NCBI RefSeq assembly: GCF_900114185.1
Contig: NZ_FOSE01000003.1
Span: 310,001-374,000 of the forward strand
Reading direction: 5' to 3'
DNA length: 64,000 nucleotides
From: Cellulomonas sp. KH9
Lineage (GTDB): Bacteria > Actinomycetota > Actinomycetes > Actinomycetales > Cellulomonadaceae
The notes under the pieces were generated by a model that had not been told where the DNA came from, made no database searches, and was given only the letters and a program-made list of their open reading frames with translations. The position numbers and the translations under genes were made by a program. Numbering within the stretch: position 1 is the stretch's first letter; the number at the start of each line of letters is the position of its first letter. Positions 24,346 to 50,559 of this stretch are shown here, one piece after another.

Positions 24346-25191
24346 TCAGCCGCCGTGGTGCGCGACCTCGGGCCGGTCCGTGTCCCACGCCCGCGGGCGG
24401 CCCGGCGCCGCGTTGTGCCGACGGGCGTCGTGGGCCGTGCTGCGCGACCGCGGGGGGACGACCGACGACACGACCCCCACGGCGGCCGTCAGCGCGCCCG
24501 CGAGGTGCGCGTCGGTCGCCGGCCCGCCGACCGTGCGGACCATGGTGCCCTCACCCTCCAGCTGCAGCGCACCCGGCAGGTCGAGGCGGGCGCCCAGCAG
24601 CAGCAGGGTGTCCAGGTGACGTCCCCCGTCGGCGAGCAGCGGGTCGAGCGCCGGCGCCGGCTCCAGCACGACCGTCTCCGCCAGGAGCGGCTGCGCCGCC
24701 CGCCGCGCCCGCACGGTGGTCCGCACCCGGCCCGCCCGCTCCCCGGGGCGGCCCAGCACGAGGGTCTCGCGCAGCACCACCCGGGCGCCCGGCGCGAGGT
24801 CGACGTGGGTGAGCCGCAGGACGTCGGCACCGTCGGCGACGAGGAAGGGCAGGCTCGGCCACAGCAGGACGGCGTCGGCGCCGAGGCGCACGTCGACCAT
24901 CCAGGTGGCCCGGCCGCCGGCCATGTCGTGCGCCGCCGCACCGGTGAGCTCCACGAGCTCGAGGGACCTGCCGGGTGCCACGTCCACCGCGATGCGGACG
25001 TCGCCCCCGGCGCCGAGCGGTCCGGCGGGGCCGAGGAGCGCCACGCGGACGCGGCCGTGCTCGTCGGGGAGCCGGCGTGCGCGGGCGACGTCGCCGTCGA
25101 GCTCGACGTCGCCGTCACCGGTGACGACGACGCGGGTGCGCGTCGCCCCGGCGTCGGGGTGCGTGCGTGTCGTGGCCTGCAGGACGTCCAC
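24346..25191 (-). CDS. ureD: Urease accessory protein UreD, distal copy
   Basis: A 281-residue UreD-family protein. Family segments are VRVALLGPAGPLGAGGDVRI, LELVELTGAAAHDM, LLWPSLPFLVADGADV, VVLRETLVLGRPGE and LDTLLLLGARLD. UreD binds the urease apoprotein and, with UreF and UreG, channels nickel into the active site. It follows a second UreD gene at 25337-26125 that it resembles along its whole length, but the two are clearly diverged. The last 45 residues (after AVGVVSSVV) are a basic, probably disordered extension not found in its neighbour. The start is a GTG with a poor ribosome site. Confidence 0.85.
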   Translation of the reverse strand: MDVLQATTRTHPDAGATRTRVVVTGDGDVELDGDVARARRLPDEHGRVRVALLGPAGPLGAGGDVRIAVDVAPGRSLELVELTGAAAHDMAGGRATWMVDVRLGADAVLLWPSLPFLVADGADVLRLTHVDLAPGARVVLRETLVLGRPGERAGRVRTTVRARRAAQPLLAETVVLEPAPALDPLLADGGRHLDTLLLLGARLDLPGALQLEGEGTMVRTVGGPATDAHLAGALTAAVGVVSSVVPPRSRSTAHDARRHNAAPGRPRAWDTDRPEVAHHGG

Positions 25192-25336
25192 CCCCGGGTG
25201 CCGGTGCCGCCGCCTCCGGGCGTCGGGCTCGCGCCATGGTCACCGAGGGCCCGGGGTCCCGCCATCGCAGGGGCGGCACCGGTGCGCAGGCCGCACGCCC
25301 CGGGGTACGGCGGCCCGCAGCGGTGGGGTGGTGCGC

Positions 25337-26125
25337 TCAGGCCGCCCCGAGCGCCGGGCGCCCGCGGGTCGCCGCGCGCCGTGCGAGCGTCACCACCTCG
25401 GCGAGGTCACCCGCGTGCGCGCGCGTGCCGACCGCCCGCACCAGGGTGCCCGGGCGGCCCAGCTGCAGGACGTCGCGCCCGGGGACGTCGTCGGCACCGG
25501 GCAGGTCGTCGCCGTCCAGCCGGGCACCCAGCACCGTGACCGTGTCGAGGCACCGGTTGCCGCCCAGCACCGCCGGGTCGGCCCACGCCGCCGGGTCCAC
25601 CACCAGCGTCTCGACCAGCAGCGGCCGGTCCGCCAGGTGCGCGCGGGTCGTGGTCGTCAGGTGACCGCCGACCTCGCCCGTGCGGCCCAGCACGACGGTC
25701 TCGCGGAGCACCGCGCCCGCCCGCTCCGCCAGGTCGACCGTCACCGTCCGGTGCACGTGGGCACCCGTCGCGACGACGAACGGCAGCGCGTCCCACACCA
25801 GCAGACCCCCGGCGCCGACGCGCACGTCGACCGCCCACGTCGCCGACCCGCCCTGCATGTCGTAGGCGACGGTGCCGGTGACCTCGACGACCTCGAGCGC
25901 GAGGTCGTCGCCGACGTCGACCGTGACCCGCACGTCGTCACCGGCCAGCAGCAGCGCCTCGGTGGCGACCAGGGCGACACGGACCGTGCGGTCCTCGTCG
26001 GGCAGCCGGCGGCAGGCGAGCAGCCCCCCGGCCGTGTCGACGCGCACCCGACCGTCGGCCGCGCGCGCGACGGCCACCCGCGTGCCGCCGTCCCGGCCGG
26101 TGCCTCGCGCCCTTGCAGCCGTCAT
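25337..26125 (-). CDS. ureD: Urease accessory protein UreD, proximal copy
   Basis: A 262-residue UreD-family protein directly after ureG. It shares with the distal copy the segments RRLPDE, TVRVALVATEALLLAGDDVRV, LEVVEVTGTVAYDMQGG, LLVWDALPFVVATGAHV, AVLRETVVLGRTGE and LDTVTVLGARLD. The usual place of ureD is after ureG in actinobacterial operons, so this is probably the ancestral one. The ATG start overlaps nothing and has a weak ribosome site 42 bases after the ureG stop. The presence of two UreD genes in one operon is unusual. Confidence 0.87.
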   Translation of the reverse strand: MTAARARGTGRDGGTRVAVARAADGRVRVDTAGGLLACRRLPDEDRTVRVALVATEALLLAGDDVRVTVDVGDDLALEVVEVTGTVAYDMQGGSATWAVDVRVGAGGLLVWDALPFVVATGAHVHRTVTVDLAERAGAVLRETVVLGRTGEVGGHLTTTTRAHLADRPLLVETLVVDPAAWADPAVLGGNRCLDTVTVLGARLDGDDLPGADDVPGRDVLQLGRPGTLVRAVGTRAHAGDLAEVVTLARRAATRGRPALGAA

Positions 26126-26166
26126 GCCCAGCGTCCCCGTGCCCGGCGTCCCCGTGCCCGCGCCGC

Positions 26167-26931
26167 TCAGCGGACGGCGTGCTCGTGGCCGTGGTCGTGG
26201 CCGTGGTCGTGGTCGTGGCTGTGGACCGTGACGTGGCCGTCCTCGTCCGCGTGGCTGTGCGGGGCCATCGGGCCGGGGTCCACGGGCGTGTGCCGGCCCT
26301 CGCGGACCGCCGCCGTCATGCGGCGCACCCAGTCCGTGAGCGCGTCGACCGACGCCGGGTCGTGGCGGGACAGGCCGATCACGGGCCCGCCCTCGCGGGC
26401 CGCCGACGCGTCCCGCAGCATGCGCGCGACGTCGACGTCCACGTACGGCGCGAGGTCCGTCTTGTTGACCACCAGCAGGTCGGCGCGCGCGATGCCCGGC
26501 CCGCCCTTGCGCGCCACGTCGCCGCCGCCGGCCACGTCGAGCACGAAGATCTGCGCGTCCACGAGCGCGGGGGAGAACGTCGCGGTGAGGTTGTCGCCGC
26601 CGGACTCGACGAGCACGAGGTCGAGCGGACCGTGGTCGGCCTCGAGGTCCTCGACGGCGATGAGGTTGGGCGTGACGTCGTCGCGGATCGCGGTGTGCGG
26701 GCAGGCGCCGGTCTCGACCGCGCGGATGCGGTCGATCTCCAGCACGCCCGCCGCGCGCAGGATCTGCGCGTCCTCGTCGGTGTAGATGTCGTTGGTGACG
26801 ACGCCCATCTCGATCTCGTCGGCGAGCTCGCGGCACAGCAGCGCGATCAGGGACGTCTTGCCGGTGCCGACGGGCCCCGCGACGCCCAGCCGGAACGCGC
26901 GGGCCGGGGTGGTGGTGACGGGCTCAGCCAT
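26167..26931 (-). CDS. ureG: Urease accessory GTPase UreG with a His-rich C-terminal tail
   Basis: A 254-residue SIMIBI-class GTPase that delivers nickel to apo-urease. The P-loop is [13 protein letters not shown], the nickel-binding Cys-Pro-His is [11 protein letters not shown], the switch segment is [16 protein letters not shown], and the base-recognition motif is VVNKTDLAP. The family usually ends near residue 205-215; here about 40 residues follow, with 11 histidines alternating with Asp/Gly/Glu in the last 31. His-rich regions in UreG are better known at the N-terminus. No ureE is present, so this tail may act as the nickel store. The start overlaps the ureF stop by 8 bases. Confidence 0.95.
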
Positions 26932-29861: not shown

Positions 29862-30164
29862 TCAGGCGATCGGGTCGTGCAGGGTGACGAGCTTGCGGCC
29901 GTCGGGGAACGTCGCCTCGACCTGCACGTCGTGCAGCATCTCCGGCACGCCCGCCATCACCTGGTCGCGGCGCAGCACGGACCTGCCGTCGGTCATGAGC
30001 TGCTCGACGCCCACGCCGTCGCGGGCGCGCTCGATCACCCAGGTGCTCAGGAGCGCGACGGTCTCGGGGTGGTTGAGCCGGACGCCGCGGGCCAACCGGT
30101 CGCGCGCGACCATGCCGGCCACGGCCAGCAGCAGCTTCTCGGTGTCGGCGGGGGTGAGCCTCAT
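29862..30164 (-). CDS. ureA: Urease gamma subunit UreA
   Basis: A 100-residue small urease subunit. It starts [20 protein letters not shown], exactly like the family, so I use ATG 30164 rather than the GTG three codons upstream. Further hallmarks are [39 protein letters not shown] and VTLHDPIA at the end. It is the first gene of the urease operon. The promoter should lie in 30165-30240, which also contains the GTATAC box and the GAAAC/GTTTAC repeat. Confidence 0.96.
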
Positions 30165-30204
30165 GACGGGCACCCTAGGTCCCCGCGCGACGCGGTATCC
30201 GCAG

Positions 30205-30217
30205 ACGTATACAGCCG
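30205..30217. promoter_or_regulatory. GTATAC box 1, upstream of ureA
   Basis: ACGTATACAGCCG with the palindromic core GTATAC at 30207-30212, 43 bases before the ureA start. The same 13-mer stands before the carboxylase gene at 45804-45816 and the core GTATAC stands before urtA at 39187-39192. GntR/FCD regulators often bind palindromes with a GT-AC frame, and two such regulators are encoded in this cluster. Confidence 0.5.
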
Positions 30218-30232
30218 AAACGGAATGTTTAC
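30216..30232. promoter_or_regulatory. CGAAAC-N5-GTTTAC inverted repeat, upstream of ureA
   Basis: CGAAAC (30216-30221), five bases, GTTTAC (30227-30232). The same arrangement with the same half-sites stands at 39109-39125 before urtA. Read as GAAAC-N6-TTTAC it resembles part of an actinobacterial GlnR box, but in reversed half order and incomplete. Confidence 0.45.
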
Positions 30233-30322: not shown

Positions 30323-30360
30323 CCTGGCAGATGGGATCCCAAAACCCAACTTCGGAGTCA

Positions 30361-31932
30361 ATGGTGAATCTGAGTCGTCGGTGCATCCGTCTGTCCTGCC
30401 TCGCCGCCGTCGCGGCCCTCGTCGTCACGGCCTGCGCCCCCGCGCAGGACATGGCGGTGGCACCCGCGGACGCGGCGCCGCCGGCCGAGCCGGAGGGGAA
30501 GGTGACCTTCCTGTCGGCGGAGAACCTGTCCGGCGACTGGGACCCCTTCGACCACACGATCCTCGCCCAGGACCGGCTGCAGCGGGCCGCGTACGAGACG
30601 CTGGTCCGCGTCGACGAGGACGGCGCCTTCCAGCCCGGCCTCGCGCTGAGCTGGGAGAACATCGCACCGACGACGTGGCGCCTGGAGCTGCGCGAGGGCG
30701 TCACGTTCCACGACGGGACCCCGATGACGGCCGAGGACGTCAAGGCGTCGATCGAGTACGTGTCCAGCCCCGAGGTCGCCTGGTCCCTGGCGTTCCCGCG
30801 CCCGTTCACCGCCGACGTGGTCGACGACCACACGGTCGACATCCACACCGGGGAGCCGTTCGCGCCCATGGCGGGCCTGCTGGCCACGGGTGCCGCCGGT
30901 GTCGTGGCACCGTCCGAGCTCATCGAGGCGGGTCGGCTCGACGAGAAGTTCGTCGGCACGGGGCCGTACCGCTGGGTGTCGTACGAGAGCGAGGCGAAGG
31001 GCGTCCACCTCACGGTCAACGAGGACTACTGGGGCGAGGAGCCCAAGATCAAGGACTACGTCTTCCGGTACGTGGGGGACAGCCAGACCCGGCTCGCCGC
31101 CCTGCGCTCCGGGCAGGCGGACATCATCGACCGGGTCGAGCCGCACCAGGTCGCGGACGTCGAGAGCGACCCGCGCCTGGCGATCACCCGGACCCCGACG
31201 GTCGAGTCGAAGTGGCTCGCGTTCCGCGCCGCCAAGCCGCCGATGGACAACGCCCTGCTGCGTCGGGCGATCGCCCACGCGATCGACGTGCCGCAGATCG
31301 TCGAGGTGGTCCTGCAGGGCAGCGGGACCGTCAACACGTCGTACTTCTCCCCGAGCCACGAGTTCCACAGCGACTCGCCCACCTTCCCGACGTACGACCC
31401 GGAGCGGGCACGCGAGCTGCTGGCCGAGGCGGGGTACCCCGGGGGTGAGGGGCTCCGGACGCTGGACCTCATGGTCTCCGTCGGCTTCTACCCGATGACC
31501 AAGGAGTACGGGGAGGTCATCGTGCAGAACCTCGCCGACGTCGGGATCGACGTCAGGCTCACGACCCTCGAGACGGCCCGGTACAACCAGGGCCTGTTCG
31601 ACCCCGAGATGGGCGACCTGTACGACCACGGCTGGTTCCTCGGCTCGTACGACGCCAACAGCGTGATGATGTCGCTCTTCGGCAACGCGCTGGTCACCTC
31701 GGTGAACGACCCCGACGTGGACGACGCGCTCGCCGCGCAGATGGCGGCCCTCGACGGGACCGAGCGGCAGCAGCTCATCGACGAGCAGCTGATGTCCGCG
31801 CTGGACGAGTCGATGCTCGAGTTCCCCATGTTCACGAGCGAGCTCATCACGGCCTACTCCCGCAACGTCCGCGACCTCGAGGTGCCCCCCACCTCGTACC
31901 ACCGCATCGAGGACGCGTTCCTCGCGAAGTGA
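30361..31932 (+). CDS. Peptide-type ABC transporter substrate-binding lipoprotein (SBP_bac_5)
   Basis: A 523-residue lipoprotein. The N-terminus MVNLSRRCIRLSCLAAVAAL with VVTAC at the lipobox indicates export and lipid attachment. The mature part is the DppA/OppA/NikA fold: WDPFDHTILAQDRLQRAAYE, WRLELREGVTFHDGTPMTAEDVKASIEY, GPYRWVSYESEAKG and LRRAIAHAIDVPQIVEVV. It should bind a peptide or similar ligand outside the membrane for the permeases that follow. Ligand specificity cannot be read; ureides, nickel complexes or peptides are options. GGAG precedes ATG 30361; an earlier in-frame ATG at 30331 has no ribosome site. It is divergent from the urease operon. Confidence 0.88.
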   Translation: MVNLSRRCIRLSCLAAVAALVVTACAPAQDMAVAPADAAPPAEPEGKVTFLSAENLSGDWDPFDHTILAQDRLQRAAYETLVRVDEDGAFQPGLALSWENIAPTTWRLELREGVTFHDGTPMTAEDVKASIEYVSSPEVAWSLAFPRPFTADVVDDHTVDIHTGEPFAPMAGLLATGAAGVVAPSELIEAGRLDEKFVGTGPYRWVSYESEAKGVHLTVNEDYWGEEPKIKDYVFRYVGDSQTRLAALRSGQADIIDRVEPHQVADVESDPRLAITRTPTVESKWLAFRAAKPPMDNALLRRAIAHAIDVPQIVEVVLQGSGTVNTSYFSPSHEFHSDSPTFPTYDPERARELLAEAGYPGGEGLRTLDLMVSVGFYPMTKEYGEVIVQNLADVGIDVRLTTLETARYNQGLFDPEMGDLYDHGWFLGSYDANSVMMSLFGNALVTSVNDPDVDDALAAQMAALDGTERQQLIDEQLMSALDESMLEFPMFTSELITAYSRNVRDLEVPPTSYHRIEDAFLAK

Positions 31933-31969
31933 GCCGCCGCACCTCGAAGGATCAAAGGAGATCTGTCGA

Positions 31970-32950
31970 ATGCTGAGATCCATCGCCCGACGCGTCGGGC
32001 AGACCCTCGTGGTGCTCCTCGGGGTCGCGACGCTGGTGTTCTTCGCCCTGCGTCTGATCCCCGGGGACCCCGCGCGGGTCATCGCCCCCACCAGCTCGCC
32101 GGAGGTGCAGGCCGAGGTCAGGCGCTCCCTCGGGCTCGACCAGCCGCTCGGCGTGCAGTACCTCACCTACCTGCGGGACCTCGTCACCGGGGACTTCGGG
32201 ACGTCCTACTTCTTCGACGGCAGCACGCTCGGGCTGATCGGCGACGCCCTGCCGTACACGCTGTACCTCGTCGTGACGGCGCTCGTCCTCGGTCTGCTGG
32301 TCTCGATGCCGCTCGGCGCGCTCGCGGCGCGGCACCGCCGGGCCGTCACGGACCGTGCGGTCCTCGGCTTCTCGATCGTCGCGCAGTCGACGCCGAACTT
32401 CCTCATCGCGCTCCTGGGGATCACGGTCCTGGCGTCGGCGCTGTCGCTGCCGACCGTCGGGTACGTGGGTCCGGTCTCGCTCGTCCTGCCGAGCATCGCG
32501 CTGGCCGTCTCGCTCGTCGGTCTGCTGACCCAGAGCATCCGCAACAACCTCGTCACGACGCTCGACGGGAGCCTCACCGAGGCGCTGCGGTCCCGGGGTG
32601 CGTCGGTCTGGCAGATCATCCTGCGCCACGGCGCACGCCTCTCGGCGGTGTCCGTGACCAACCTGCTGGGGGTCCAGCTCGGCTTCCTGCTCGGCGGGGC
32701 CGTGGTGATCGAGTACATCTTCAACTACCCGGGTCTGGGGCTGCTCACGCTGAACGCCGTGCTGCGCCGCGACTACCCGCTGATCCAGGCGATCACGATC
32801 ACCACGGCGCTGGTCTTCGTGCTGCTCAACCTGGTCATCGACCTGTCGCACGGGTACCTCGACCCCCGGATGCGGCCGGCGCGTCGCCGGCCGGCACGTG
32901 CGCCGCGCGCGACGGCGACCGTCGCGACGGCAGGAGGGAGCGCAGCATGA
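31970..32950 (+). CDS. ABC transporter permease, DppB-like
   Basis: A 326-residue inner-membrane permease with six predicted segments. The start MLRSIARRVGQTLVVLLGVATLVFFALRLIPGDP reads as two adjoining family blocks, and the coupling-helix (EAA-like) region is LTEALRSRGASVWQIILRHG. It forms half of the channel with the next gene. AAAGGAG lies about 9 bases before the ATG. It overlaps the following permease gene by four bases (ATGA). The C-terminus after LDPRMRPARRRP is basic and cytoplasmic. Confidence 0.9.
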   Translation: MLRSIARRVGQTLVVLLGVATLVFFALRLIPGDPARVIAPTSSPEVQAEVRRSLGLDQPLGVQYLTYLRDLVTGDFGTSYFFDGSTLGLIGDALPYTLYLVVTALVLGLLVSMPLGALAARHRRAVTDRAVLGFSIVAQSTPNFLIALLGITVLASALSLPTVGYVGPVSLVLPSIALAVSLVGLLTQSIRNNLVTTLDGSLTEALRSRGASVWQIILRHGARLSAVSVTNLLGVQLGFLLGGAVVIEYIFNYPGLGLLTLNAVLRRDYPLIQAITITTALVFVLLNLVIDLSHGYLDPRMRPARRRPARAPRATATVATAGGSAA

Positions 32951-37103: not shown

Positions 37104-37114
37104 GGACGGACCCC

Positions 37115-39108: not shown

Positions 39109-39125
39109 CGAAACCCGATGTTTAC
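39109..39125. promoter_or_regulatory. CGAAAC-N5-GTTTAC inverted repeat, upstream of urtA
   Basis: CGAAAC (39109-39114), five bases, GTTTAC (39120-39125). The half-sites and spacing are identical to those at 30216-30232 before ureA. Another GAAAC occurs at 39144-39148. TAGCGT at 39159-39164 is a possible -10 box downstream. Confidence 0.45.
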
Positions 39126-39186
39126 CGAACGCAGGCGATCCGCGAAACACGGCATCCCTAGCGTCCTCGGCCATGGGCACCGGCCT

Positions 39187-39192
39187 GTATAC
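39187..39192. promoter_or_regulatory. GTATAC box 2, upstream of urtA
   Basis: GTATAC within CTGTATACGC, 89 bases before the urtA TTG and just downstream of the likely promoter (TAGCGT at 39159), where a bound repressor would block elongation. It matches the core of the boxes at 30207 and 45806. Confidence 0.45.
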
Positions 39193-39280
39193 GCCGCGGG
39201 ACACAGCGCGGTGGCACGCGGTGGGTCGGCGCCCGGGCCCGGCATCGCCCGTCAGCTCGTCCTGATCGAAAGGCATCCCG

Positions 39281-40567
39281 TTGACCACTCACCCCCTCCC
39301 CTCGCGGACGACCCGGAAGCGCGCGCTCGCCGTCTCCGCGGCCGCGCTCGCGGCCGCCCTGACGCTCTCGGCCTGCGGCGGCGCCCGCACCGCGGACGCC
39401 GCCGACGGCTCGCCGTCCGCGTCCGGTGGCTCCTCCTGCGTCGACACGTCCGGCGACACCGTCAAGATCGGGTTCCTCAACTCCCTGTCCGGGACCATGG
39501 CCATCTCCGAGCAGACGGTCCGCGACTCCCTCGACCTCGCCGCGGAGGAGATCAACGCGGCCGGTGGCGTGCTCGGCAAGCAGCTCGAGATCGTCGCCGA
39601 GGACGGCGCGTCCGAGCCCACCGTCTTCGCCGAGAAGGCCGAGAAGCTCATCTCGTCCGACTGCGTCGCCGCGGTCTTCGGCGGCTGGACGTCCTCGTCG
39701 CGCAAGGCGATGCTGCCGGTCTTCGAGTCGAGGAACTCGCTGCTGTTCTACCCGGTCCAGTACGAGGGCCTCGAGGCGTCGTCGAACATCTTCTACACGG
39801 GCGCCACGACGAACCAGCAGATCATCCCCGGCATGGACTACCTGGCCGAGCAGGGCAAGAAGAAGGTCTTCCTCGTCGGCTCGGACTACGTCTTCCCGCG
39901 CACGGCGAACAAGATCATCAACGCCTACGCCGAGGCCAACGGCATCGAGATCGTCGGCGAGGAGTACGCGCCGCTCGGCCACACCGACTTCGCGACGATC
40001 GTCAACAAGCTGAAGGCGTCCGGGGCGGACGCCGTGTTCAACACGCTCAACGGTGACTCCAACGTCGCGTTCTTCAAGGAGTACAAGAACGTCGGCCTGA
40101 CCGCGGACGCCGTCCCGGTCGTCTCGGTGTCGATCGCCGAGGAGGAGGTCGGCGGGATCGGCGTCGACAACATCGTCGGCCAGCTCACCGCCTGGAACTA
40201 CTACCAGACGGTCGAGTCGCCCACGAACGAGACGTTCGTCGCCGCGTTCAAGGAGAAGTACGGCGAGGACCGCCCCACCTCCGACCCGATGGAGGCCGCG
40301 TACACCTCGCTGTACCTGTGGAAGGGCATGGTCGAGAAGGCCGAGTCCTTCGAGGTCGCGGACATCCAGGACGCGGCCGACGGCGTCACCTTCGACGCCC
40401 CCGAGGGCACCGTCACCGTGAACGGCGACAACCACCACATCGCCAAGACGGCGTACATCGGCAAGATCGACGCCGACGGCCTCATCTACCCGGTGTGGGA
40501 GTCCGACGGCCCGATCGAGCCGGACCCGTTCCTCGAGGGCTACGAGTGGGCCGAGGGCCTGTCCTGA
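39281..40567 (+). CDS. urtA: Urea ABC transporter substrate-binding lipoprotein UrtA
   Basis: A 428-residue binding protein. The signal peptide ends in the lipobox LTLSAC. The mature part is UrtA-like: [28 protein letters not shown]-like [49 protein letters not shown] and [20 protein letters not shown]. The WTSSSRKA and YPVQYEG blocks distinguish urea-binding proteins from branched-chain amino acid ones. The start is TTG with GAAAGG about 7 bases upstream. It is first in urtABCDE and is separated from urtB by a hairpin that may raise its relative abundance. Confidence 0.94.
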
Positions 40568-40601
40568 TCCCCGTCCCGCGCACCAGGACGCACCCCTGAG
40601 C

Positions 40602-40641
40602 GGTGGCCCGGTCCGAGCCGTACGGTCCGGACCGGGCCACC
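40602..40641 (+). terminator. Intra-operon stem-loop between urtA and urtB
   Basis: GGTGGCCCGGTCCG and CGGACCGGGCCACC form a perfect 14-bp stem with a 12-base loop. It begins 34 bases after urtA and ends 40 bases before urtB. It could be a partial terminator or a 3' stabiliser that makes the binding protein more abundant than the membrane parts. Confidence 0.7.
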
Positions 40642-40681
40642 CGCCGGGGACGTCGACCACCCCCACGGAAGGCGGCGCCGC

Positions 40682-42762: not shown

Positions 42763-43658
42763 CCCCGCACCCCGAGAGCGTCGAGCCGGTCGTGCCCGAC
42801 GACGCCGGGGGCCTGGACCCCGAGGCCCTCGAGCAGGTCATCGCCGCACCCGGCGAGCGGTTCCGGCACGACTACCTGGAGATCCGCGACCTGCGCGTGG
42901 TGTTCGACGGGTTCGTGGCCGTCGACGGCGTGGACCTCACGGTCACCCGCGGCGACCTGCGGTTCCTCATCGGCCCCAACGGCGCCGGCAAGACGACGAT
43001 CGTCGACGCGATCACCGGGCTCGCCCCCGCCACCGGGTCCGTGCAGTTCGGCCGTGTCGACCTGCTGGGCAAGCCGTCGCACCGGATCGTGCGCGCCGGC
43101 GTCGGGCGCACCTTCCAGACCGCGAGCGTCTTCGACGAGCTCACGGTGCTGCAGAACCTCGACATCGCCGCGGGCGCGGGGCGCGGACCCGTGACGATGC
43201 TGCGCCGCCGGCGCGGGGTCCCGCCGGAGGTCGAGGCGGCGCTGGAGACGGTCGGTCTGACGAAGGTCCGGGACCTGCCGGCGGGCATCCTCGCGCACGG
43301 GCAGAAGCAGTGGCTCGAGATCGGGATGCTCCTGGTCCAGGACGCCCGCCTGCTGCTGCTCGACGAGCCGGTGGCCGGCATGAGCCAGGCCGAGCGCGAG
43401 GAGACCGGTCTGCTGCTGCAGCGCATCGGCGAGCAGCGCACGGTCGTCGTCGTCGAGCACGACATGGAGTTCCTGCGGGCCTTCGCCGCCTCGGTCACCG
43501 TGCTGCACCAGGGCAGGGTCCTGTCCGAGGGCACGGTCGCGGAGGTGCAGGCCGACCCCCGCGTCGTCGAGGTCTACCTGGGGTCGGGCACGCACGGCCG
43601 AGGGCGGGGGACGACCGCCGCGGCGGCCGCACCCGCCGCGAGCACGGAGGTGGAGTGA
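42759..43658 (+). CDS. urtD: Urea ABC transporter ATPase UrtD
   Basis: A 299-residue LivG-type ATPase. Walker A is GPNGAGKTTIVDAITG, the UrtD-type block is VGRTFQTASVFDELTVLQNL, Walker B is LLLLDEPVAGMS and the H-loop is VVVVEHDMEF. The signature region reads LAHGQKQWLEIGMLL, the GQKQWLEIGM form that is usual in UrtD rather than LSGGQ. About 40 extra residues precede the domain and about 20 Ala/Arg-rich residues follow it. One-base overlap (TGATG) with urtE. Confidence 0.94.
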   Translation: MTPHPESVEPVVPDDAGGLDPEALEQVIAAPGERFRHDYLEIRDLRVVFDGFVAVDGVDLTVTRGDLRFLIGPNGAGKTTIVDAITGLAPATGSVQFGRVDLLGKPSHRIVRAGVGRTFQTASVFDELTVLQNLDIAAGAGRGPVTMLRRRRGVPPEVEAALETVGLTKVRDLPAGILAHGQKQWLEIGMLLVQDARLLLLDEPVAGMSQAEREETGLLLQRIGEQRTVVVVEHDMEFLRAFAASVTVLHQGRVLSEGTVAEVQADPRVVEVYLGSGTHGRGRGTTAAAAAPAASTEVE

Positions 43659-44350
43659 TGCTGGAGCTGCGCGGGCTGCACGTGGGGTACGGCCGCACGG
43701 CCGTCGTCCACGGCGTCGACATCGAGGTCCCGGACGGCGCCGTCGTGGCCGTGATGGGGCACAACGGCGCGGGCAAGACGACGCTCCTGCGGGCGGCGGT
43801 CGGGCTGCTGCCCGCCCGCTCCGGCACGGTCCTGCTCGGCGGTGAGGACGTCACGCGCACGCGGCCGCACCAGCGCGTGCGCGCCGGTCTGGCGTACGTG
43901 CCGCAGGGCCAGCAGTCGTTCGGGCAGCTCACGGCGCGGGAGAACCTGCAGCTCGTCGCCGACGTCGCCGGGTCGCAGGGGGCGCGCCGGCTCGACGAGG
44001 CGCTCGACCTGTTCCCCGCCCTGCGGGGGCTGCTCACGCGCCGCGCGGGTCTGCTGTCCGGCGGTCAGCGCCAGCAGCTCGCGATCGCCCGGGCCCTCAT
44101 CACAGGCCCGCGGCTGATCGTCCTCGACGAGCCGACCGAGGGGATCCAGCCGTCGGTCGTCGCCGAGATCGAGGACGCGATCGTGCAGCTCGCATCGGGC
44201 GGGCTGTCGGTGCTCCTGGTCGAGCAGCACGTCGGGTTCGCCCTCGCCGCGTCGTCGCACTACTACGTGCTGGAGTCCGGGCGGGTCACCGCGCACGGCG
44301 CCGGCGGCGTGGCGCAGGAGGGCGACGTGCGTGCCGCGATGGCGATCTGA
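43658..44350 (+). CDS. urtE: Urea ABC transporter ATPase UrtE
   Basis: A 230-residue LivF-type ATPase. Walker A is GHNGAGKTTLLRA, the signature is LSGGQRQQLAIARAL, Walker B is LIVLDEPTEGIQPSVV and the H-loop is LLVEQHVGFA. LAYVPQGQQSFGQLTARENL is typical of UrtE. It completes the five-gene urea importer. The next gene, a GntR regulator, starts about 80 bases downstream in the same direction. Confidence 0.94.
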   Translation: MLELRGLHVGYGRTAVVHGVDIEVPDGAVVAVMGHNGAGKTTLLRAAVGLLPARSGTVLLGGEDVTRTRPHQRVRAGLAYVPQGQQSFGQLTARENLQLVADVAGSQGARRLDEALDLFPALRGLLTRRAGLLSGGQRQQLAIARALITGPRLIVLDEPTEGIQPSVVAEIEDAIVQLASGGLSVLLVEQHVGFALAASSHYYVLESGRVTAHGAGGVAQEGDVRAAMAI

Positions 44351-44428
44351 GCGCGACCGGCCCGGGGCGGACCGCGGGAGCACGGCCGAGCGGCGTCGCC
44401 GCCGGCCACGAGTCAGGGGGTGGGAGTG

Positions 44429-45136
44429 ATGGGCGCGTCCACGGGTCCGTCGGCGGGCGCGGCCGCGAGCGGCTCGCTGCGGGAGCACGTCTACCAGCGG
44501 CTGCGCGACGAGATCCTCAACGGCAGGGTCTCACCGCGGGAGCGGCTCACCGAGCCCAAGCTGTCCCGGGCGTTCGAGGTGTCCCGCACCCCGGTGCGGG
44601 AGGCGCTGTCGCGCCTGCTGTCCGACGGCCTGGTCGAGCGCACCGACTTCGGCTACGCGGTGGTCGTGCCGTCGCTCGCGTCGCTGCGGGACCTGTACGA
44701 GCTGCGGATCACCCTGGAGCTGCGGGGGATCGCCCGGGCCATCGAGAACCCGCAGGTGCGCCACGACCGGGCGGTGCTGGGCGCCGAGCTCGCGCGGTGG
44801 CAGGAGCTGCGGGACGTCGTGCCCGACCCCGACCCGAGCTTCGTGGTGCTCGACGAGGGCTTCCACCGGGCGCTGTCGCAGGCGTCCGGCAACGCGCAGC
44901 TCACGGACGCGCTGGTCACGGTGAACCAGAAGATCCGTGCCGTGCGGATGCACGACTTCGTCGAGGACGAACGGGTCACCGCGACCATCGAGGAGCACCT
45001 GGAGATCCTCGACCTCGTGCTCGCGGAGCGGCTGGCCGAGGCGCTCACGGCACTGCACCGGCACGTGGGGGAGTCGCTGGAGGTCGTCATGGAGCGCGCC
45101 TCGCACGCGATGGCGCGCATGGCGCTCACGGGCTGA
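44429..45136 (+). CDS. GntR-family regulator with FCD ligand domain (second copy)
   Basis: A 235-residue regulator. The winged helix (about 10-75) contains VYQRLRDEILNGRVSPRERL and SRTPVREALSRLLSDGLVER. The FCD domain (about 85-225) includes YELRITLELRGIARAIE, LDEGFHRALSQASGNAQL and IEEHLEILDLVLAERL with the expected metal-ligand His positions. It directly follows urtE and is the natural candidate regulator of the urea genes. It is not a close copy of the regulator at 37115-37861. ATG 44429 is preferred; GTG 44420 is in frame with a weaker ribosome site. Confidence 0.88.
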   Translation: MGASTGPSAGAAASGSLREHVYQRLRDEILNGRVSPRERLTEPKLSRAFEVSRTPVREALSRLLSDGLVERTDFGYAVVVPSLASLRDLYELRITLELRGIARAIENPQVRHDRAVLGAELARWQELRDVVPDPDPSFVVLDEGFHRALSQASGNAQLTDALVTVNQKIRAVRMHDFVEDERVTATIEEHLEILDLVLAERLAEALTALHRHVGESLEVVMERASHAMARMALTG

Positions 45137-45146
45137 GGCGCGCGCG

Positions 45147-45605
45147 TCAGGCGAGGACCACCGGACAGTCGTCCTCCCAGATCCGCGCCACGGTGTCGCG
45201 GGCCGGGGGGAGGTCGGGGAACGCCTGCGACCACATGTCCCCGATGTCGGCGCGGCCCTCGGTGCCGATCAGGTAGAACCCGAAGTTCACCACGTCGTAG
45301 CCCTTGACGTTCTCGCAGACCGCGCGCGCACCGTCCCGCACGACGGTCACGTCGAGCGGCACCTCGTCGGGCCACCTGACGGTCACCGTCATCGTGTTGG
45401 CGAAGCCGTCGAGGTGCGCGCCGACGTGCGTCTCGTCGGCGTCCGGCAGCGCCTCGGCCACGGCGTCCTTGACGACCGTGGTGATCGCGACGCCGTCCTC
45501 GTCGACCGGCGGCCCGAGAGCCTGGTCGCGCAGGGCGCTGCAACCGCCGAGCACGACGGTCAGCGTGAGGGTCGCGGCGAGTGCGGCCACGGTGCGTCGT
45601 GCCAT
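45147..45605 (-). CDS. Small secreted lipoprotein of unknown function
   Basis: A 152-residue protein. The signal segment MARRTVAALAATLTLTVVL is followed by the lipobox LGGC, so it should be exported and lipid-anchored. The mature part includes VVKDAVAEALPDADETHVGA, FANTMTVTVRWPDEVP and two cysteines (AVCENV and DDCPVVLA), which may form a disulfide. I recognise no family. It converges with the second GntR gene (10-base gap) and is divergent from the carboxylase gene. An upstream in-frame start at 45692 would put basic residues before the signal peptide and is unlikely. Confidence 0.65.
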   Translation of the reverse strand: MARRTVAALAATLTLTVVLGGCSALRDQALGPPVDEDGVAITTVVKDAVAEALPDADETHVGAHLDGFANTMTVTVRWPDEVPLDVTVVRDGARAVCENVKGYDVVNFGFYLIGTEGRADIGDMWSQAFPDLPPARDTVARIWEDDCPVVLA

Positions 45606-45769
45606 GGGTGCGGGGGTCCTTCGGGTCGGGTGGCGGGGTCGCCCAACGTAGACGGGAGCCGCACGCGGGTGCGCGAGGGACACCCGGCGCACGGGGTGAA
45701 ACCGGTCCTCGCGTCGGTCCCGCGCCCCCGCCCGGGCGTAACCCCCCGTTCACGCCCACGCGCCTCCGG

Positions 45770-45785
45770 GGAAACAGCGGTTTCC
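45770..45785. promoter_or_regulatory. Perfect palindrome GGAAAC-AGCG-GTTTCC before the carboxylase
   Basis: GGAAAC (45770-45775) and GTTTCC (45780-45785) are a perfect 6-bp inverted repeat with a 4-base spacer, 68 bases before the carboxylase GTG. It resembles the GAAAC-N5-GTTTAC repeats before ureA and urtA but with one base less in the spacer. Confidence 0.4.
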
Positions 45786-45803
45786 TACGGTCCGGATACC
45801 GGC

Positions 45804-45816
45804 ACGTATACAGCCG
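45804..45816. promoter_or_regulatory. GTATAC box 3, upstream of the urea-type carboxylase
   Basis: ACGTATACAGCCG, identical over 13 bases to 30205-30217 before ureA, 37 bases before the GTG at 45853. TACGGT at 45786-45791 is a possible -10 box, which would place this element at or just after the transcription start. Confidence 0.5.
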
Positions 45817-45852
45817 GCGCGTGGACACCTGGCCGCCGACCCGAAGGACACC

Positions 45853-48800
45853 GTGTTCGACACCCTGCTCGTGGCCGACCGCGGCGAGATCGCCGTGCGC
45901 GTCCTGCGCACGGCGGCCCGGCTGGGCCTGCGCACGGTGGCGGTGCACACCGACGTCGACGCCGCTGCGCCGCACGTGCGCCTCGCCGACGTCGCGGTGC
46001 CGCTCGGTCCCCCCGGCGCCTACCGGCACGCCGACGCGGTCATCGCCGCGGCGAGGGCCACCGGGGCCGGGGCGGTCCACCCCGGGTACGGGGTCCTGTC
46101 CGAGGACGCGGGCTTCGCCGCGGCGGTCGAGGCCGCCGGGCTGGTGTTCGTCGGCCCGGCACCCGAGCACCTGGCCGTGTTCGGCGACAAGCACCGCGCG
46201 CGGCGGGCGGCACGCGCGGCCGGTGTCCCGCTGCTGCCCGGCAGCGGTCTGCTGAGCGACGTCGAGGAGGCGGTGGCAGCGGCCGAGGGGCTCGGCTACC
46301 CGGTGATGGTCAAGGCCGTCGGCGGGGGCGGTGGCACCGGGGTACGTGCGTGCGCGACGCCGGCGGAGCTCCGCGCGGCGTACGCGCGCCTCCGCGGCCT
46401 GCCGGCCGGGGGCGGCGGCGTGTACGTCGAGCGCCTGGTGCGCCGCGCGCGGCACGTCGAGGTGCAGGTGTTCGGCGACGGCACCGGGCGCGTCGTGAGC
46501 CTGGGGGACCGCGACTGCTCGCTGCAGCGCCGGCACCAGAAGGTGATCGAGGAGGCCCCGGCACCGGAGCTCTCCGACGACCTGCGCGAGCGGCTGGCCA
46601 CGTCGGCGCGCGCCCTGACCTCGTCGGTCGCGTACCGGTCGGCCGGGACCGTGGAGTACGTCGTCGACGTCGACCGGGGGGACGCGGCGTTCCTCGAGGT
46701 CAACGCACGGCTTCAGGTCGAGCACACCGTCACCGAGGAGGTCACGGGTGTCGACCTCGTCGCCTGGATGCTGCGCCTCGCACGCGGTGACGCGGACCTG
46801 CGCACCGAGCTGGCCGCGCTGCCGGAGGCAGGTCCGTCGGTCCGCGGGCACGCCGTCGAGGCGCGCGTCCACGCCGAGGACCCGCGGCGCGACCACCGCC
46901 CCGGCACGGGCCTGCTCACCTCGGTCACGTTCCCGGACGGCGTGCGGGTCGACGCCGGGGTCGAGGCGGGTCAGGAGGTCACGACCCACTACGACGCGCT
47001 GCTCGCCAAGGTCGTCGTGCACGCCGACGACCGGGACGCCGCCCTGGCCGCGGCGGGTGCCGCGCTCGCGGGCACGTCCGTGCACGGCGTCAGCACCAAC
47101 CTGCCGCTGCTGCGCGCCGCCGTCGCCGACGACGCCGTGCGGGCGGTGCGCCACACCACGGGGACCCTCGCGGGGATCGTCGACGACGAGCCGTGGGTCG
47201 AGGTGCTGCGACCCGGCGTGCTGACGACGGTGCAGGACTGGCCCGGCCGCCTGGGGCACTGGGACGTGGGGATCTGCCCGTCGGGCCCCATGGACGACCT
47301 GTCGTTCCGGCTGGGCAACGTCGCACTCGGCAACCCCGAGGGTGCGCCGGGCCTGGAGTGCACGCTCGAGGGGCCGGCGCTGCGGTTCAGCCACGCGGCG
47401 GTCGTGTGCGTCTCGGGTGCCGCCGCTCCTGTGACCGTCGACGGTGCTCCCGTGCCGCAGTGGGAGCCCGTCGACGTCCCGGCCGGTGCCGTGCTCGCCG
47501 TCGGCGCGCCGTCGGGTGCCGGGCTGCGCACGTACGTGCTGCTCCGGGGAGGGCTCGACGTCCCGGAGTACCTCGGGTCGGCCGCGACGTTCCCGCTCGG
47601 CGGGTTCGGCGGGTACACCGGGCGGGCGCTGGAGACCGGTGACGTGCTCGTCCCCGCGCCCGTCCCGGAGGGCGCCCCGGCCCCGGCCGCCGTGCCGCGG
47701 GAGGCCCGTCCGCAGATCGGCCACGCGTGGGAGCTCGCCGTGCAGGAGGGGCCGCAGCCGGCGCCGACCTACCTCACGCGCGACGACATGGTGATGCTCC
47801 ACGCCACGACGTGGCACGTGCAGGCGCACACCGACCGCACGGGCATCCGGCTGTCCGGGCCGCGTCCGCGCTGGGCGCGCCCGGACGGCGGCGAGGCGGG
47901 TCTGCACCCGTCGAACCTGCACGACAACCCGTACTCCGTCGGTGCGCTCAACGTCTCGGGGGACACCCCGATCCTGCTGGGTCCCGACGGCCCGTCGCTC
48001 GGCGGGTTCGTGTGCCCCGTCACGGTGGTCGTGGGGCACCGGTGGAAGCTGGGGCAGGTGCGCCCCGGCGACACCGTCCGTCTCGTGCCCGTCCCGACGG
48101 CGACGGCCGACGCGCTGCGGGTGTCGCCCCGGCGGGCGGGCGCGTGCGTCCCCGCGGACCTCGCGACCGGCCCCGACGGCGACGACGGCGTCCTCGCGCG
48201 GGTCACCGGGGACCCCGGCGACCCGCGGGGCCGGCCCGACGTGGTGTACCTGCGCGGCGCGGACGACAACGTGCTGGTCGAGTACGGGCCGATGGTGCTC
48301 GACCTCGGGCTGCGGATGCGGGTGCACGCCCTCGCCGAGGCGCTGCGGGGGCGCGCGCTGCCCGGGGTCGTCGACGTCACGCCCGGGGTCCGCAGCCTGC
48401 ACGTGCACGTCGACCCCGCGCTGCTGCCGGTGCCCGCGCTCGTCGAGGTGCTCGTCGCGCTCGAGGCCGACCTGCCGGCGACCGTCGACCTCGAGGTCCC
48501 GTCGCGGCGGGTGCACCTGCCGATCGCGTTCGACGACCCGGCCGTCGCGGACGCGGTCACCCGGTACGCGGTCGGCGTGCGCGCGCGGGCACCGTGGCTG
48601 CCCTCGAACCTGGAGTTCGTGCGGCGCGCGAACGGCCTGGCGTCGACCGACGACGTCCTGGCGACCGTGGCTGCCGCGGAGTACCTGGTGCTGGGCCTGG
48701 GCGACGTGTACCTGGGTGCGCCGCTCGCCGTGCCCCTCGACCCGCGGCACCGGCTCATGACGACCAAGTACAACCCCGCGCGCACGTGGACCGCCGCGGA

Positions 48801-49479
48801 CACCGTCGGGCTGGGCGGCCAGTACCTGTGCGTCTACGGCACGGACTCCCCGGGCGGGTACCAGCTGGTCGGGCGGACCCTCCCCATCTGGTCCGGGCAC
48901 CGGCAGCACGGGGCCTTCGAGCCCGGCGTCCCGTGGCTGCTGCGGTTCTTCGACCGCATCGTGTGGGAGCCGGTGACCGCCGCCGAGCTCGGCGCGCGGC
49001 GCCGGGCGTCCTCCGCCGGCCGGCTGGACCTGCGCGTCGAGCAGGGCACGTTCCGGTACCGCGACCACCTCGACCTGCTCGCGACCCACGCCGACGAGAT
49101 CGCGGAGCACCGTGCCCGGCAGGCGGCCGCGTTCGCCGTCGAGCGGGCCGCGTGGGCCGCGGCCGGCGAGCTCGGCCCGTTCGACCAGGGCCCGTTCGAC
49201 CTCGCGCCGCCCGCGCCCGTGGCCACCGTCGGGCACCGCGTCGAGCTGGCCGCCGGGCACGTGCTCGTCGAGGCGCCGATGGTCGGGTCGGTGTGGCGCG
49301 TCGAGGCCGCGCCCGGGTCCGAGGTCCGCGCCGGCGACCCGGTGGTCGCGCTCGAGGCCATGAAGCTCGAGCTGGGTGTCCCCTCGCCGTGCGACGGGCG
49401 GGTGGTCCGCGTGCTGGTCGAACCGGGGCAGCAGGTGGGCCCGGGGGCGCCGCTCGCGGTCGTGGCGGCGACGGCATGA
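45853..49479 (+). CDS. Urea/guanidine-type biotin carboxylase (urea amidolyase carboxylase component)
   Basis: A 1208-residue multidomain enzyme. Order: biotin carboxylase with ATP-grasp (about 1-445; GEIAVRVLRTAARLG, VKAVGGGGGTGVR, FLEVNARLQVEHTVTEEV), allophanate-hydrolase-subunit-2/KipA-like domain (about 448-760; GVLTTVQDWPGRLGHWDVG), subunit-1-like domain (about 803-1060; PGVRSLHVHVDP) and a biotinyl domain with VALEAMKLE, biotin on K1171. It should carboxylate urea, or guanidine as shown for many bacterial relatives, with ATP and bicarbonate. The amidase half of urea amidolyase is absent and no separate allophanate hydrolase or carboxyguanidine deiminase follows. GAAGGA precedes the GTG. 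Confidence 0.9.
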   Translation: MFDTLLVADRGEIAVRVLRTAARLGLRTVAVHTDVDAAAPHVRLADVAVPLGPPGAYRHADAVIAAARATGAGAVHPGYGVLSEDAGFAAAVEAAGLVFVGPAPEHLAVFGDKHRARRAARAAGVPLLPGSGLLSDVEEAVAAAEGLGYPVMVKAVGGGGGTGVRACATPAELRAAYARLRGLPAGGGGVYVERLVRRARHVEVQVFGDGTGRVVSLGDRDCSLQRRHQKVIEEAPAPELSDDLRERLATSARALTSSVAYRSAGTVEYVVDVDRGDAAFLEVNARLQVEHTVTEEVTGVDLVAWMLRLARGDADLRTELAALPEAGPSVRGHAVEARVHAEDPRRDHRPGTGLLTSVTFPDGVRVDAGVEAGQEVTTHYDALLAKVVVHADDRDAALAAAGAALAGTSVHGVSTNLPLLRAAVADDAVRAVRHTTGTLAGIVDDEPWVEVLRPGVLTTVQDWPGRLGHWDVGICPSGPMDDLSFRLGNVALGNPEGAPGLECTLEGPALRFSHAAVVCVSGAAAPVTVDGAPVPQWEPVDVPAGAVLAVGAPSGAGLRTYVLLRGGLDVPEYLGSAATFPLGGFGGYTGRALETGDVLVPAPVPEGAPAPAAVPREARPQIGHAWELAVQEGPQPAPTYLTRDDMVMLHATTWHVQAHTDRTGIRLSGPRPRWARPDGGEAGLHPSNLHDNPYSVGALNVSGDTPILLGPDGPSLGGFVCPVTVVVGHRWKLGQVRPGDTVRLVPVPTATADALRVSPRRAGACVPADLATGPDGDDGVLARVTGDPGDPRGRPDVVYLRGADDNVLVEYGPMVLDLGLRMRVHALAEALRGRALPGVVDVTPGVRSLHVHVDPALLPVPALVEVLVALEADLPATVDLEVPSRRVHLPIAFDDPAVADAVTRYAVGVRARAPWLPSNLEFVRRANGLASTDDVLATVAAAEYLVLGLGDVYLGAPLAVPLDPRHRLMTTKYNPARTWTAADTVGLGGQYLCVYGTDSPGGYQLVGRTLPIWSGHRQHGAFEPGVPWLLRFFDRIVWEPVTAAELGARRRASSAGRLDLRVEQGTFRYRDHLDLLATHADEIAEHRARQAAAFAVERAAWAAAGELGPFDQGPFDLAPPAPVATVGHRVELAAGHVLVEAPMVGSVWRVEAAPGSEVRAGDPVVALEAMKLELGVPSPCDGRVVRVLVEPGQQVGPGAPLAVVAATA

Positions 49480-49578
49480 CCGCGCCCCCGCGGCGGACCC
49501 CGCCGCCGCGCCCCACCCCTGCGCTCTCGCCCGGACACCCGTCCGGTGCCGCCCACACCGTCAGCGAGGAGCACGACC

Positions 49579-50559
49579 ATGCACGTTCCTGACCACGTCC
49601 TCAGCGACCCCGTCTCCGCCGGCACGGCCGTCGCGGCCGGCGCGGTCGTCGTCGCGGCCGCCGTGCGTGCCCGGCGCGACGGCGCCCACGCCCCGCACCC
49701 GGTGATGATCGGCGCCACCACCGCCGCGGTGTTCGGGCTCCAGATGCTCAACTACCCCGTCGGCGCCGGGACGAGCGGCCACCTCATGGGGGGTGCGCTC
49801 GCCGCGGCGCTGCTCGGGCCGGCCTGGGGGATCCTCTCGGTGACGCTGGTCCTCGTGGTGCAGTCGGTCGTCTTCGCCGACGGCGGCCTGACGGCGCTGG
49901 GCACGAACACGCTGCTCATCGCCGTGGTCGGCACGCTCATGGGGTGGGCGGTCGCGCGCGGGGTGCTCGGGGCGGGCCGGCCACGGGCGGATCGCGACGT
50001 CCGGGTGTCGGCGCCCGGGGGCGCGGCCGTCGGCGGCGCGGTGAGCGTCGTCGCGGCGGCGCTGCTGTTCGTCGGGCTGTACGCCGCCGGCGGCACGGTG
50101 GCGGTGCCGCTCGGCGCGCTCGCGGGCCAGATGCTGGGGGTGCACCTGCTCATCGCGGTCGGGGAGGCCGTGATCGCCGGTGCCGTCGTCGCCGTCGTCG
50201 CCGCGGTGCGGCCGTCCGCCGTGGCCCTGACGGCGCCCGACGGGCTGCCCTCGCGGGCCGGGGTCCTCGCGCCTGCGGGCGTGCTCACGGGGATCGCCGC
50301 GCTCGCCGCGCTCGCGCTGTCCGCCGTCGCGTCCGCGGCCCCCGACGGCCTGGAGGCCACGGCGGAGCGCGCGGGGTTCGCCGGCGCCGCACGTGACCAC
50401 GCGCTCGGCGGGATGCCGCTGGCCGACTACGGCGAGGTCGGGGGGATCGTCGTCGGGGTGGCCGGGGGCATCGGCCTGGTGCTGTGCCTGCTCGTCGCGA
50501 CGGGGCTGGCCGCCGCGATGACGCGAGGACGCGCGCGGACGCTCACCGCCGGGGCCTGA
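49579..50559 (+). CDS. cbiM: CbiM/NikM-type nickel/cobalt ECF permease with C-terminal PDGLE segment
   Basis: A 326-residue membrane protein. The N-terminus MHVPDHVLSD matches the MHIPD start of CbiM/NikM, where His2 binds the metal. Core segments include GLQMLNYPVGAGTSGHLMGG and LTALGTNTLLIAVVGTLMGW with further conserved His/Asn. About residues 225-325 carry two more hydrophobic segments around APDGLEATAERAGF, the PDGLE motif of the NikN-type partner, so M and N parts are fused. No cbiQ or cbiO genes follow. It lies about 100 bases after the carboxylase, near a urease that needs nickel. GAGGAG precedes the ATG. Confidence 0.85.
   Translation: MHVPDHVLSDPVSAGTAVAAGAVVVAAAVRARRDGAHAPHPVMIGATTAAVFGLQMLNYPVGAGTSGHLMGGALAAALLGPAWGILSVTLVLVVQSVVFADGGLTALGTNTLLIAVVGTLMGWAVARGVLGAGRPRADRDVRVSAPGGAAVGGAVSVVAAALLFVGLYAAGGTVAVPLGALAGQMLGVHLLIAVGEAVIAGAVVAVVAAVRPSAVALTAPDGLPSRAGVLAPAGVLTGIAALAALALSAVASAAPDGLEATAERAGFAGAARDHALGGMPLADYGEVGGIVVGVAGGIGLVLCLLVATGLAAAMTRGRARTLTAGA

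What the first reader, a model, noticed from the sequence alone, without database searches (positions are those of the whole stretch)
24346..50559. A multi-locus urea/nitrogen island with a shared, apparently undescribed promoter code
Seen: the three control regions before ureA, urtA and the carboxylase all carry GTATAC, at 30207, 39187 and 45806. Two of them sit in the identical 13-mer ACGTATACAGCCG. I noticed no other GTATAC in the window, and AT-rich hexamers are rare in DNA this GC-rich. Known: GntR/FCD regulators bind short GT-AC palindromes, and two are encoded inside the island. Inference: one of them, most likely the gene just after urtE, links urea import, urease and the carboxylase in one regulon.
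Basis: partly seen in the sequence, partly recalled or inferred. Interest (0 to 1): 0.75.

Follow-up and report, generated by a model that had tools for sequence, protein, structure and literature searches.

The report
Urea-gene switch with repeated operator
In Cellulomonas and related soil bacteria, a repressor gene lying among the urea genes appears to bind a repeated short DNA tag at the promoters for urea import, urease and urea carboxylase, beside sites for the general nitrogen regulator GlnR, so that these genes may switch on only when nitrogen is short and a urea-derived signal is present.

Summary
GTATAC occurs three times in the window, before ureA, urtA and the urea carboxylase gene, and 14 times in the 4.17-Mb genome; GTATACAGCCG occurs only twice in the genome, both here. 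The regulon inference is well supported comparatively, though binding was not tested. Of 80 urtA loci (76 scorable), GTATAC lies upstream of urtA in 46 of 51 with a linked orthologue of the post-urtE GntR/FCD gene and in 0 of 25 without it. It is the hexamer most strongly associated with that gene among 1838 tested. The site is an array: at urtA and the carboxylase related hexamers sit 12 bp away. At urtA and the carboxylase the array follows the predicted -10, as a repressor site would. A sister GntR beside allophanate hydrolase has GTATAC before its gene in 8 of 12 loci, hinting at an allophanate-like signal. The genome has urea carboxylase, but no allophanate hydrolase was found over cut-off. 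Best reading: GlnR-activated promoters gated by a urea-pathway GntR repressor.

The parts
30207..30212 (.). GTATAC operator unit, ureA side
   Evidence: 43 bp upstream of ureA ATG; GTATAC in 10 of 13 gntR+ loci with ureA, 0 of 9 gntR-
30195..30200 (.). sister hexamer GTATCC, 12 bp from GTATAC
   Evidence: read; the 12-bp step is well supported at urtA and the carboxylase, less so at ureA (5 of 17 pairs at +/-12, 8 at -22)
30217..30232 (+). GlnR-like box GAAAC-n6-TTTAC
   Evidence: exact; 4 in whole genome, control 0
30172..30177 (-). predicted ureA -10 (TAGGGT)
   Evidence: read; consensus only, TSS not mapped
29862..30164 (-). ureA, urease gamma subunit
   Evidence: frame; orthologues 75-94% identical in relatives
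39110..39125 (+). GlnR-like box GAAAC-n6-TTTAC before urtA
   Evidence: box found in 30 of 50 urtA regions with GTATAC, 77 bp before it in 24 of those 30
39159..39164 (+). predicted urtA -10 (TAGCGT)
   Evidence: pattern found in 36 of 50 regions; gap to GTATAC 22 bp in 26, 34 bp in 9, 20 bp in 1
39175..39180 (.). array unit GGGCAC
   Evidence: 12 bp before GTATAC; unit class at -12 in 36 of 41 different urtA regions
39187..39192 (.). GTATAC operator unit before urtA
39199..39204 (.). array unit GGACAC
   Evidence: 12 bp after GTATAC; unit class at +12 in 34 of 41 different urtA regions
39281..40567 (+). urtA, urea ABC transporter binding protein, first gene of urtABCDE
   Evidence: TIGR03407 576.3 bits, cut-off 492.75
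43658..44351 (+). urtE
   Evidence: TIGR03410 285.6 bits, just under its cut-off of 285.8
44429..45136 (+). GntR/FCD regulator proposed to bind the array; conserved Asp and three His of the FCD metal site
   Evidence: PF00392 and PF07729; co-occurrence; alignment of 16 rows
45738..45753 (+). GlnR-like box GTAAC-n6-TTCAC before the carboxylase
   Evidence: 2 mismatches to the urtA form, weak alone; conserved form GTAAC-n6-TT[TC]AC in most Cellulomonas carboxylase regions
45786..45791 (+). predicted carboxylase -10 (TACGGT)
   Evidence: TSS not mapped
45794..45799 (.). array unit GGATAC
   Evidence: 12 bp before GTATAC
45806..45811 (.). GTATAC operator unit before urea carboxylase
45853..49479 (+). 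urea carboxylase, with Asn700/Asp951 urea-type signature and biotin motif EAMKLEL
   Evidence: TIGR02712
37115..37861 (+). second GntR/FCD gene, not the regulator of this array

Best explanation
The GTATAC sites are the most recognisable unit of a tandem operator (hexamers of the type GKNNMC, typically GGATAC or GTATAC, repeated at a 12-bp step) for the GntR/FCD protein encoded right after urtE. At urtA and the carboxylase the array lies just downstream of the predicted -10, over the likely start point. At ureA it lies between the GlnR-like box and the predicted -10. GlnR would activate these promoters under nitrogen limitation; GntR would block them until a urea-pathway metabolite, most likely allophanate or a close relative, binds its FCD domain. 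Shown here: co-occurrence, conservation, array geometry, GlnR-like boxes. Inferred: binding, repression, effector.
For: GTATAC upstream of urtA in 46 of 51 gntR+ loci and 0 of 25 gntR- (4 of 80 not scorable, 3 of them with the site); top of 1838 hexamers, Fisher 1.8e-15. All 5 gntR+ loci without GTATAC carry variant hexamers at the same 12-bp step. Kineosporia pair: K. babensis with gntR has GTATAC, K. rhizophila without linked gntR has GTACTG at the same place. The site follows gntR rather than the carboxylase: 11 gntR+ loci without a carboxylase in the held flank have it, 3 do not. GGATAC-n6-GTATAC in 17 of 150 family genomes, 14 of them beside gntR and/or the carboxylase. Sister hexamers at +/-12 bp in 39 of 44 pairs at urtA. 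Gap from predicted -10 at urtA 22 bp (26 of 36 regions) or 34 bp (9 of 36), i.e. one unit more. Sister GntR next to allophanate hydrolase: GTATAC in 8 of 12 loci, with hexamers 12 bp away. glnR present.
Against: No binding or expression data. On the tree only 6 independent contrasts on supported branches; the site goes the same way in 4.8 of 6 on average, does not differ in 1.2 and goes the opposite way in 0, sign test p about 0.06. 12 of 38 carboxylase genes lack GTATAC within 400 bp, several lying close behind gntR. At ureA the step is mostly not 12 bp: 5 of 17 pairs at +/-12, 8 at -22. Near-arrays without linked gntR: L096 (GGATAC-n6-GTATTC) and L067 (GGATGC-n6-GTATCC). In one positive locus (L092) GTATAC lies 294 bp before urtA, beside the divergent gntR. 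A GlnR-like box was found in 30 of 50 urtA and 21 of 27 carboxylase regions with GTATAC, not all. The wider hexamer class (51 of 51 against 1 of 25) was chosen after seeing the exceptions.
Confidence: 0.77

Rival explanations
1. GTATAC is part of an extended GlnR site; no second regulator is needed.
For: GlnR-like boxes lie in the same regions; one published GlnR box, GAAAC-n6-GTATC in S. avermitilis, resembles it (passage).
Against: gntR- relatives with GlnR-like boxes before urtA (L048, L050, L054, L055, L061, L065) have no GTATAC. The array has a 12-bp step at urtA and the carboxylase; the published GlnR repeat is 11 nt.
Confidence: 0.06
2. A different regulator, encoded elsewhere, binds the array; gntR linkage only marks the lineages that have it.
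For: Linkage is not binding; L096 and L067 have near-arrays without linked gntR.
Against: The sister GntR group in allophanate hydrolase operons has GTATAC and 12-bp neighbours before its own gene in 8 of 12 loci. The second GntR of the window has no match above 31% in the 80 loci.
Confidence: 0.1
3. The urtA element is a leaderless leader peptide or an RNA element of the 5' leader.
For: ATG or GTG stands 8 nt after the predicted -10 in 31 of 33 regions examined (21 ATG, 10 GTG, 1 AGG, 1 GGG); short frame M/V-G-T-x(n)-Y-T.
Against: Start codon absent in L023 and L044; peptide not conserved beyond about 13 residues. The ureA element in the window lies upstream of the predicted -10. No plausible Rfam match in the leaders.
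Confidence: 0.04
4. Shared descent only: relatives kept similar promoters without function.
For: Only 6 independent contrasts on well-supported branches.
Against: Surrounding intergenic DNA has diverged while array and spacing persist in Cellulomonas, Oerskovia, Cellulosimicrobium, Rhodococcus and Kineosporia.
Confidence: 0.03

Closest known systems
E. coli NanR (GntR/FCD) and its (GGTATA)3 operator (PMC8012715, passages read)
   Same: GntR-type repressor; tandem hexamer repeats downstream of the RNA polymerase site; uptake and catabolic operons. NanR is the second-best NCBIfam hit of this GntR (52.9 bits, below cut-off).
   Different: 12-bp step here; NanR dimers sit about half a turn apart. 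Hexamer GKATAC instead of GGTATA; urea pathway; different effector expected.
GlnR regulon of actinomycetes (PMC10704036, passages read)
   Same: GlnR-type a/b boxes with n6 spacing; ureA is a known GlnR target.
   Different: Here a second, pathway-specific operator array appears to be stacked on the same promoters.
M. smegmatis urea carboxylase operon under GlnR and AmtR (PMC4222082, passages read)
   Same: Urea carboxylase/amidase genes under GlnR plus a secondary regulator.
   Different: Secondary regulator there is AmtR (TetR family, the family recalled); here GntR/FCD with another operator.
PhnR-type GntR (TIGR03338)
   Same: Best NCBIfam hit of this protein (70.8 bits).
   Different: Far below the curated cut-off of 271.5 bits.

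Membership tests
GntR family, FCD subfamily | N-terminal GntR winged helix and C-terminal FCD domain | tested here: met
   PF00392 65.5 bits, PF07729 66.3 bits, both over the gathering score
GntR family, FCD subfamily | Asp plus three His metal site of FCD (site recalled) | tested here: met
   D and H of DEGFH, H of EEH and second H of LHRHV conserved in all 16 rows aligned
NanR equivalog | NF003011 curated cut-off 260 bits | tested here: not met
   52.9 bits
GlnR-regulated promoter | a/b box with n6 spacing | tested here: met
   exact GAAAC-n6-TTTAC at two regions, a 2-mismatch form at the third; consensus
GlnR-regulated promoter | GlnR encoded in the genome | tested here: met
   PF21695 148.5 bits, over cut-off
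GlnR-regulated promoter | GlnR binding and response to nitrogen | not testable with these tools
   needs gel shift or transcript data
Urea carboxylase | TIGR02712 over cut-off, Asn (not Asp) at K. lactis 1330, Asp at 1584 | tested here: met
   1528.6 bits; N700 and D951; positions from PMC11410670 (passages) mapped through the 3va7 and 5i8i matches
Guanidine carboxylase | Asp at K. lactis 1330 | tested here: not met
   Asn in all 11 enzymes examined
Urea amidolyase pathway | allophanate hydrolase alongside urea carboxylase | tested here: not met
   none over cut-off in own genome; best hit is GatA

The most novel reading that the evidence does not exclude
In this genome and 11 others of 34 carboxylase-bearing family genomes, urea carboxylase persists without a detected allophanate hydrolase. 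All 12 have this GntR (12 of 24 carboxylase genomes with it, 0 of 10 without). Boldest reading: urease now does the nitrogen release, and the carboxylase is kept as a signal-making enzyme that turns urea into allophanate, the inducer that lifts GntR from urt, ure and its own gene.
Probability: 0.15. Interest if true: 0.75.

Novelty: new variant of a known kind. Interest (0 to 1): 0.52.

Why it matters
Pathway-specific control of urea import, urease and urea carboxylase by a GntR repressor was not found in seven full-text searches (openly licensed PMC papers only, most hits seen as listings). If true it adds a substrate gate to GlnR promoters, gives a readable 12-bp operator code that predicts targets in several actinobacterial families, and supplies natural contrasts (gntR lost, site decayed). 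The carboxylase without allophanate hydrolase makes a question about metabolite signalling directly testable.

Tried and rejected
Rfam search for a leader RNA (guanidine riboswitches considered because of the carboxylase): only tRNA and msiK at gathering scores in the window; one implausible match in 38900-46000 at E up to 5.

Guanidine carboxylase: rejected by the Asn signature. Allophanate hydrolase in the own genome: the best hit proved to be GatA.

Leader peptide at urtA: weakened. GTATAC as a -10 element: at urtA and in 22 of 25 carboxylase regions with a recognised -10 it lies 14-34 bp downstream of that -10, but in 3 carboxylase regions (gap -2) it overlaps the -10, and in the allophanate hydrolase operons TATACA could itself be the -10; left open there. 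The second GntR as regulator: rejected.

Papers: PMC4617892, PMC4222082, PMC8012715, PMC10704036, PMC11410670 and PMC5343134 were read as passages only; the others were seen in listings only. PMC5343134 (Proteobacteria) places allophanate hydrolase, urease and urt under NtrC, not a GntR, in the passages seen.

Full report
What was checked. GTATAC is present exactly where stated and nowhere else in the window. In the whole genome it occurs 14 times in 4.17 Mb, and GTATACAGCCG only twice, both in the island. On window statistics alone this is modest (2 of 100 shuffles reach 3), so I turned to relatives. The other 11 genome sites look unrelated: one lies in an OppD/F-like coding sequence and one in a tRNA gene (my reading of the sequence), and the only match to the window proteins used as queries (11 of them) in the roughly 3-kb loci was a generic ABC ATPase at 27-28%.

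Host and layout. UrtA is 92-93% identical to Cellulomonas sp. N5CT and C. phragmiteti. In those two, ureA and urtA are divergent neighbours about 220 bp apart. In the window a nickel/peptide-type ABC operon, a C69-like protein, a second GntR and a glycerate kinase stand between them, so two of the three reported sites probably descend from one ancestral control region.

Co-occurrence. Of 80 urtA loci (the best 80 of 351 related stretches), 76 could be scored. GTATAC lies within -350..+80 of urtA in 46 of 51 loci with a linked orthologue (at least 45% identity) of the urtE-adjacent GntR and in 0 of 25 without; of the 4 unscorable loci (short flanks) 3 have the site. In one of the 46 (L092) the site is at -294, beside the divergent gntR. 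Among 1838 strand-collapsed hexamers GTATAC has the strongest association with gntR (Fisher 1.8e-15), followed by the overlapping TATACA. The association is with gntR rather than the carboxylase: 11 gntR+ loci without a carboxylase in the held flank have the site (3 do not), and the one locus with a carboxylase but no linked gntR lacks it. Relatedness matters: on a UrtA+B+D tree gntR changes 9 times (at least 6 on well-supported branches); in the 6 independent contrasts the site goes the same way in 4.8 on average, does not differ in 1.2 and never goes the opposite way, p about 0.06. The Kineosporia pair is the clearest contrast: GTATAC with gntR, GTACTG without.

The other two promoters. 26 of 38 carboxylase genes whose start lies in the held DNA have GTATAC within 400 bp. 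ureA: 10 of 13 gntR+ loci have it, the other 3 have ureA directly behind the carboxylase; 0 of 9 gntR- loci have it, 8 of these having ureA behind another gene and one (L052) its own upstream region (operon position judged by eye). In loci with gntR, 85 of 94 GTATAC lie upstream of these three genes, and 4 of the other 9 look like carboxylase-type promoters.

The real unit is an array. Sister hexamers stand 12 bp from GTATAC: 39 of 44 pairs at urtA; 23 at -12 and 4 at +24 of 32 at the carboxylase; but at ureA only 5 of 17, with 8 at -22. The wider class GKNNMC is at -12 in 36 and at +12 in 34 of 41 different urtA regions, and at -12 in 14 of 17 carboxylase regions, with a median of 0 over all offsets (identical regions counted once, regions with short flanks dropped). 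The five gntR+ loci without GTATAC (Actinokineospora, Pseudonocardia) hold arrays of the same step with GGACAC/GTCGAC or GGATAC/GTATCC. With a wider class picked after seeing them, all 51 gntR+ and 1 of 25 gntR- loci match. Against this, L096 and L067 have near-arrays without linked gntR. Searched through 150 family genomes, GKATAC-n6-GTATAC is in 24 (reversed control in 1). Of the 17 asymmetric cases 14 are beside gntR and/or the carboxylase, one of these (L104) before allophanate hydrolase; 3 are elsewhere, and the 7 symmetric cases showed no match to these genes. Ten carboxylase genomes with this GntR lack the exact composite.

GlnR. All three window regions hold GlnR-like boxes: GAAAC-n6-TTTAC exactly at 30217 and 39110 (4 in the genome, control 0) and GTAAC-n6-TTCAC at 45738 (two mismatches to that pattern). 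The published consensus is gTnAc-n6-GaAAc and relatives. A glnR gene is present. Among regions with GTATAC a box was recognised in 30 of 50 at urtA and 21 of 27 at the carboxylase; box to GTATAC is 77 bp in 24 of the 30 and 69 bp in 14 of the 21. A -10 was recognised in 36 of 50 and 25 of 27; the gap to GTATAC is 22 bp (26 of 36) or 34 bp (9 of 36) at urtA and 14-16 bp in 19 of 25 at the carboxylase. An operator there suits a repressor. At ureA in the window the array lies between box and predicted -10, also compatible with repression. Start points are predicted, not mapped.

Effector. A sister GntR group (52-58% identical, 13 genes) sits beside allophanate hydrolase in 12 of 13 cases. I fetched those 12; GTATAC is before the gntR gene in 8 of 12, with neighbours at 12 bp, 3 more have GTATCC or GTATGC in its place and one has none. 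The common thread of both groups is allophanate. The FCD metal site is conserved; in known FCD proteins it often holds carboxylates (recalled). Allophanate as effector is inference.

Odd enzyme set. The window carboxylase has the urea-type, not guanidine-type, signature and a biotin motif, but no allophanate hydrolase over cut-off was found in the genome. Of 34 family genomes with urea carboxylase, 12 lack a detected allophanate hydrolase (E up to 1e-100; the partial one of G148 counted as present), all among the 24 with this GntR (0 of 10 without; Fisher 0.006, genera not independent). This motivates the signal-enzyme reading, held at low probability.

Literature. Seven full-text searches brought up no paper that, from its listing or the passages I opened, describes a GntR regulator of urt, urease or urea carboxylase; most hits were seen as listings only. 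M. smegmatis uses GlnR plus AmtR for its carboxylase operon. The nearest operator precedent found is NanR.

Noticed in passing
window 45853-49479; whole genome: Urea carboxylase without a detected allophanate hydrolase in the genome; the same in 12 of 34 carboxylase-bearing family genomes.
   Followed up: partly
window 30331-39045: A nickel/peptide-type ABC operon with second GntR, C69-like protein and glycerate kinase splits what is a short ureA-urtA control region in L021 and L022; a GlnR-like box stands at both ends (30217, 39110), whereas one such box was found in L021.
   Followed up: partly
window 24346-25191 and within 25337-26836, minus strand: Two adjacent UreD-like genes in one urease cluster.
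   Followed up: no
window 39173-39265: Possible leaderless small frame starting 8 nt after the predicted urtA -10; ATG or GTG in 31 of 33 regions examined.
   Followed up: partly
window 6528-6586, minus strand: msiK RNA motif RF01747, 64.8 bits.
   Followed up: no
genome contig C2:800014-800054 (L004): Three GTATAC within 41 bp, perhaps another palindromic operator.
   Followed up: no
L096 (Prescottella defluvii) and L067 (Pseudonocardia lacus): Near-arrays GGATAC-n6-GTATTC and GGATGC-n6-GTATCC before urtA without linked gntR, perhaps decaying sites or an unlinked regulator.
   Followed up: no
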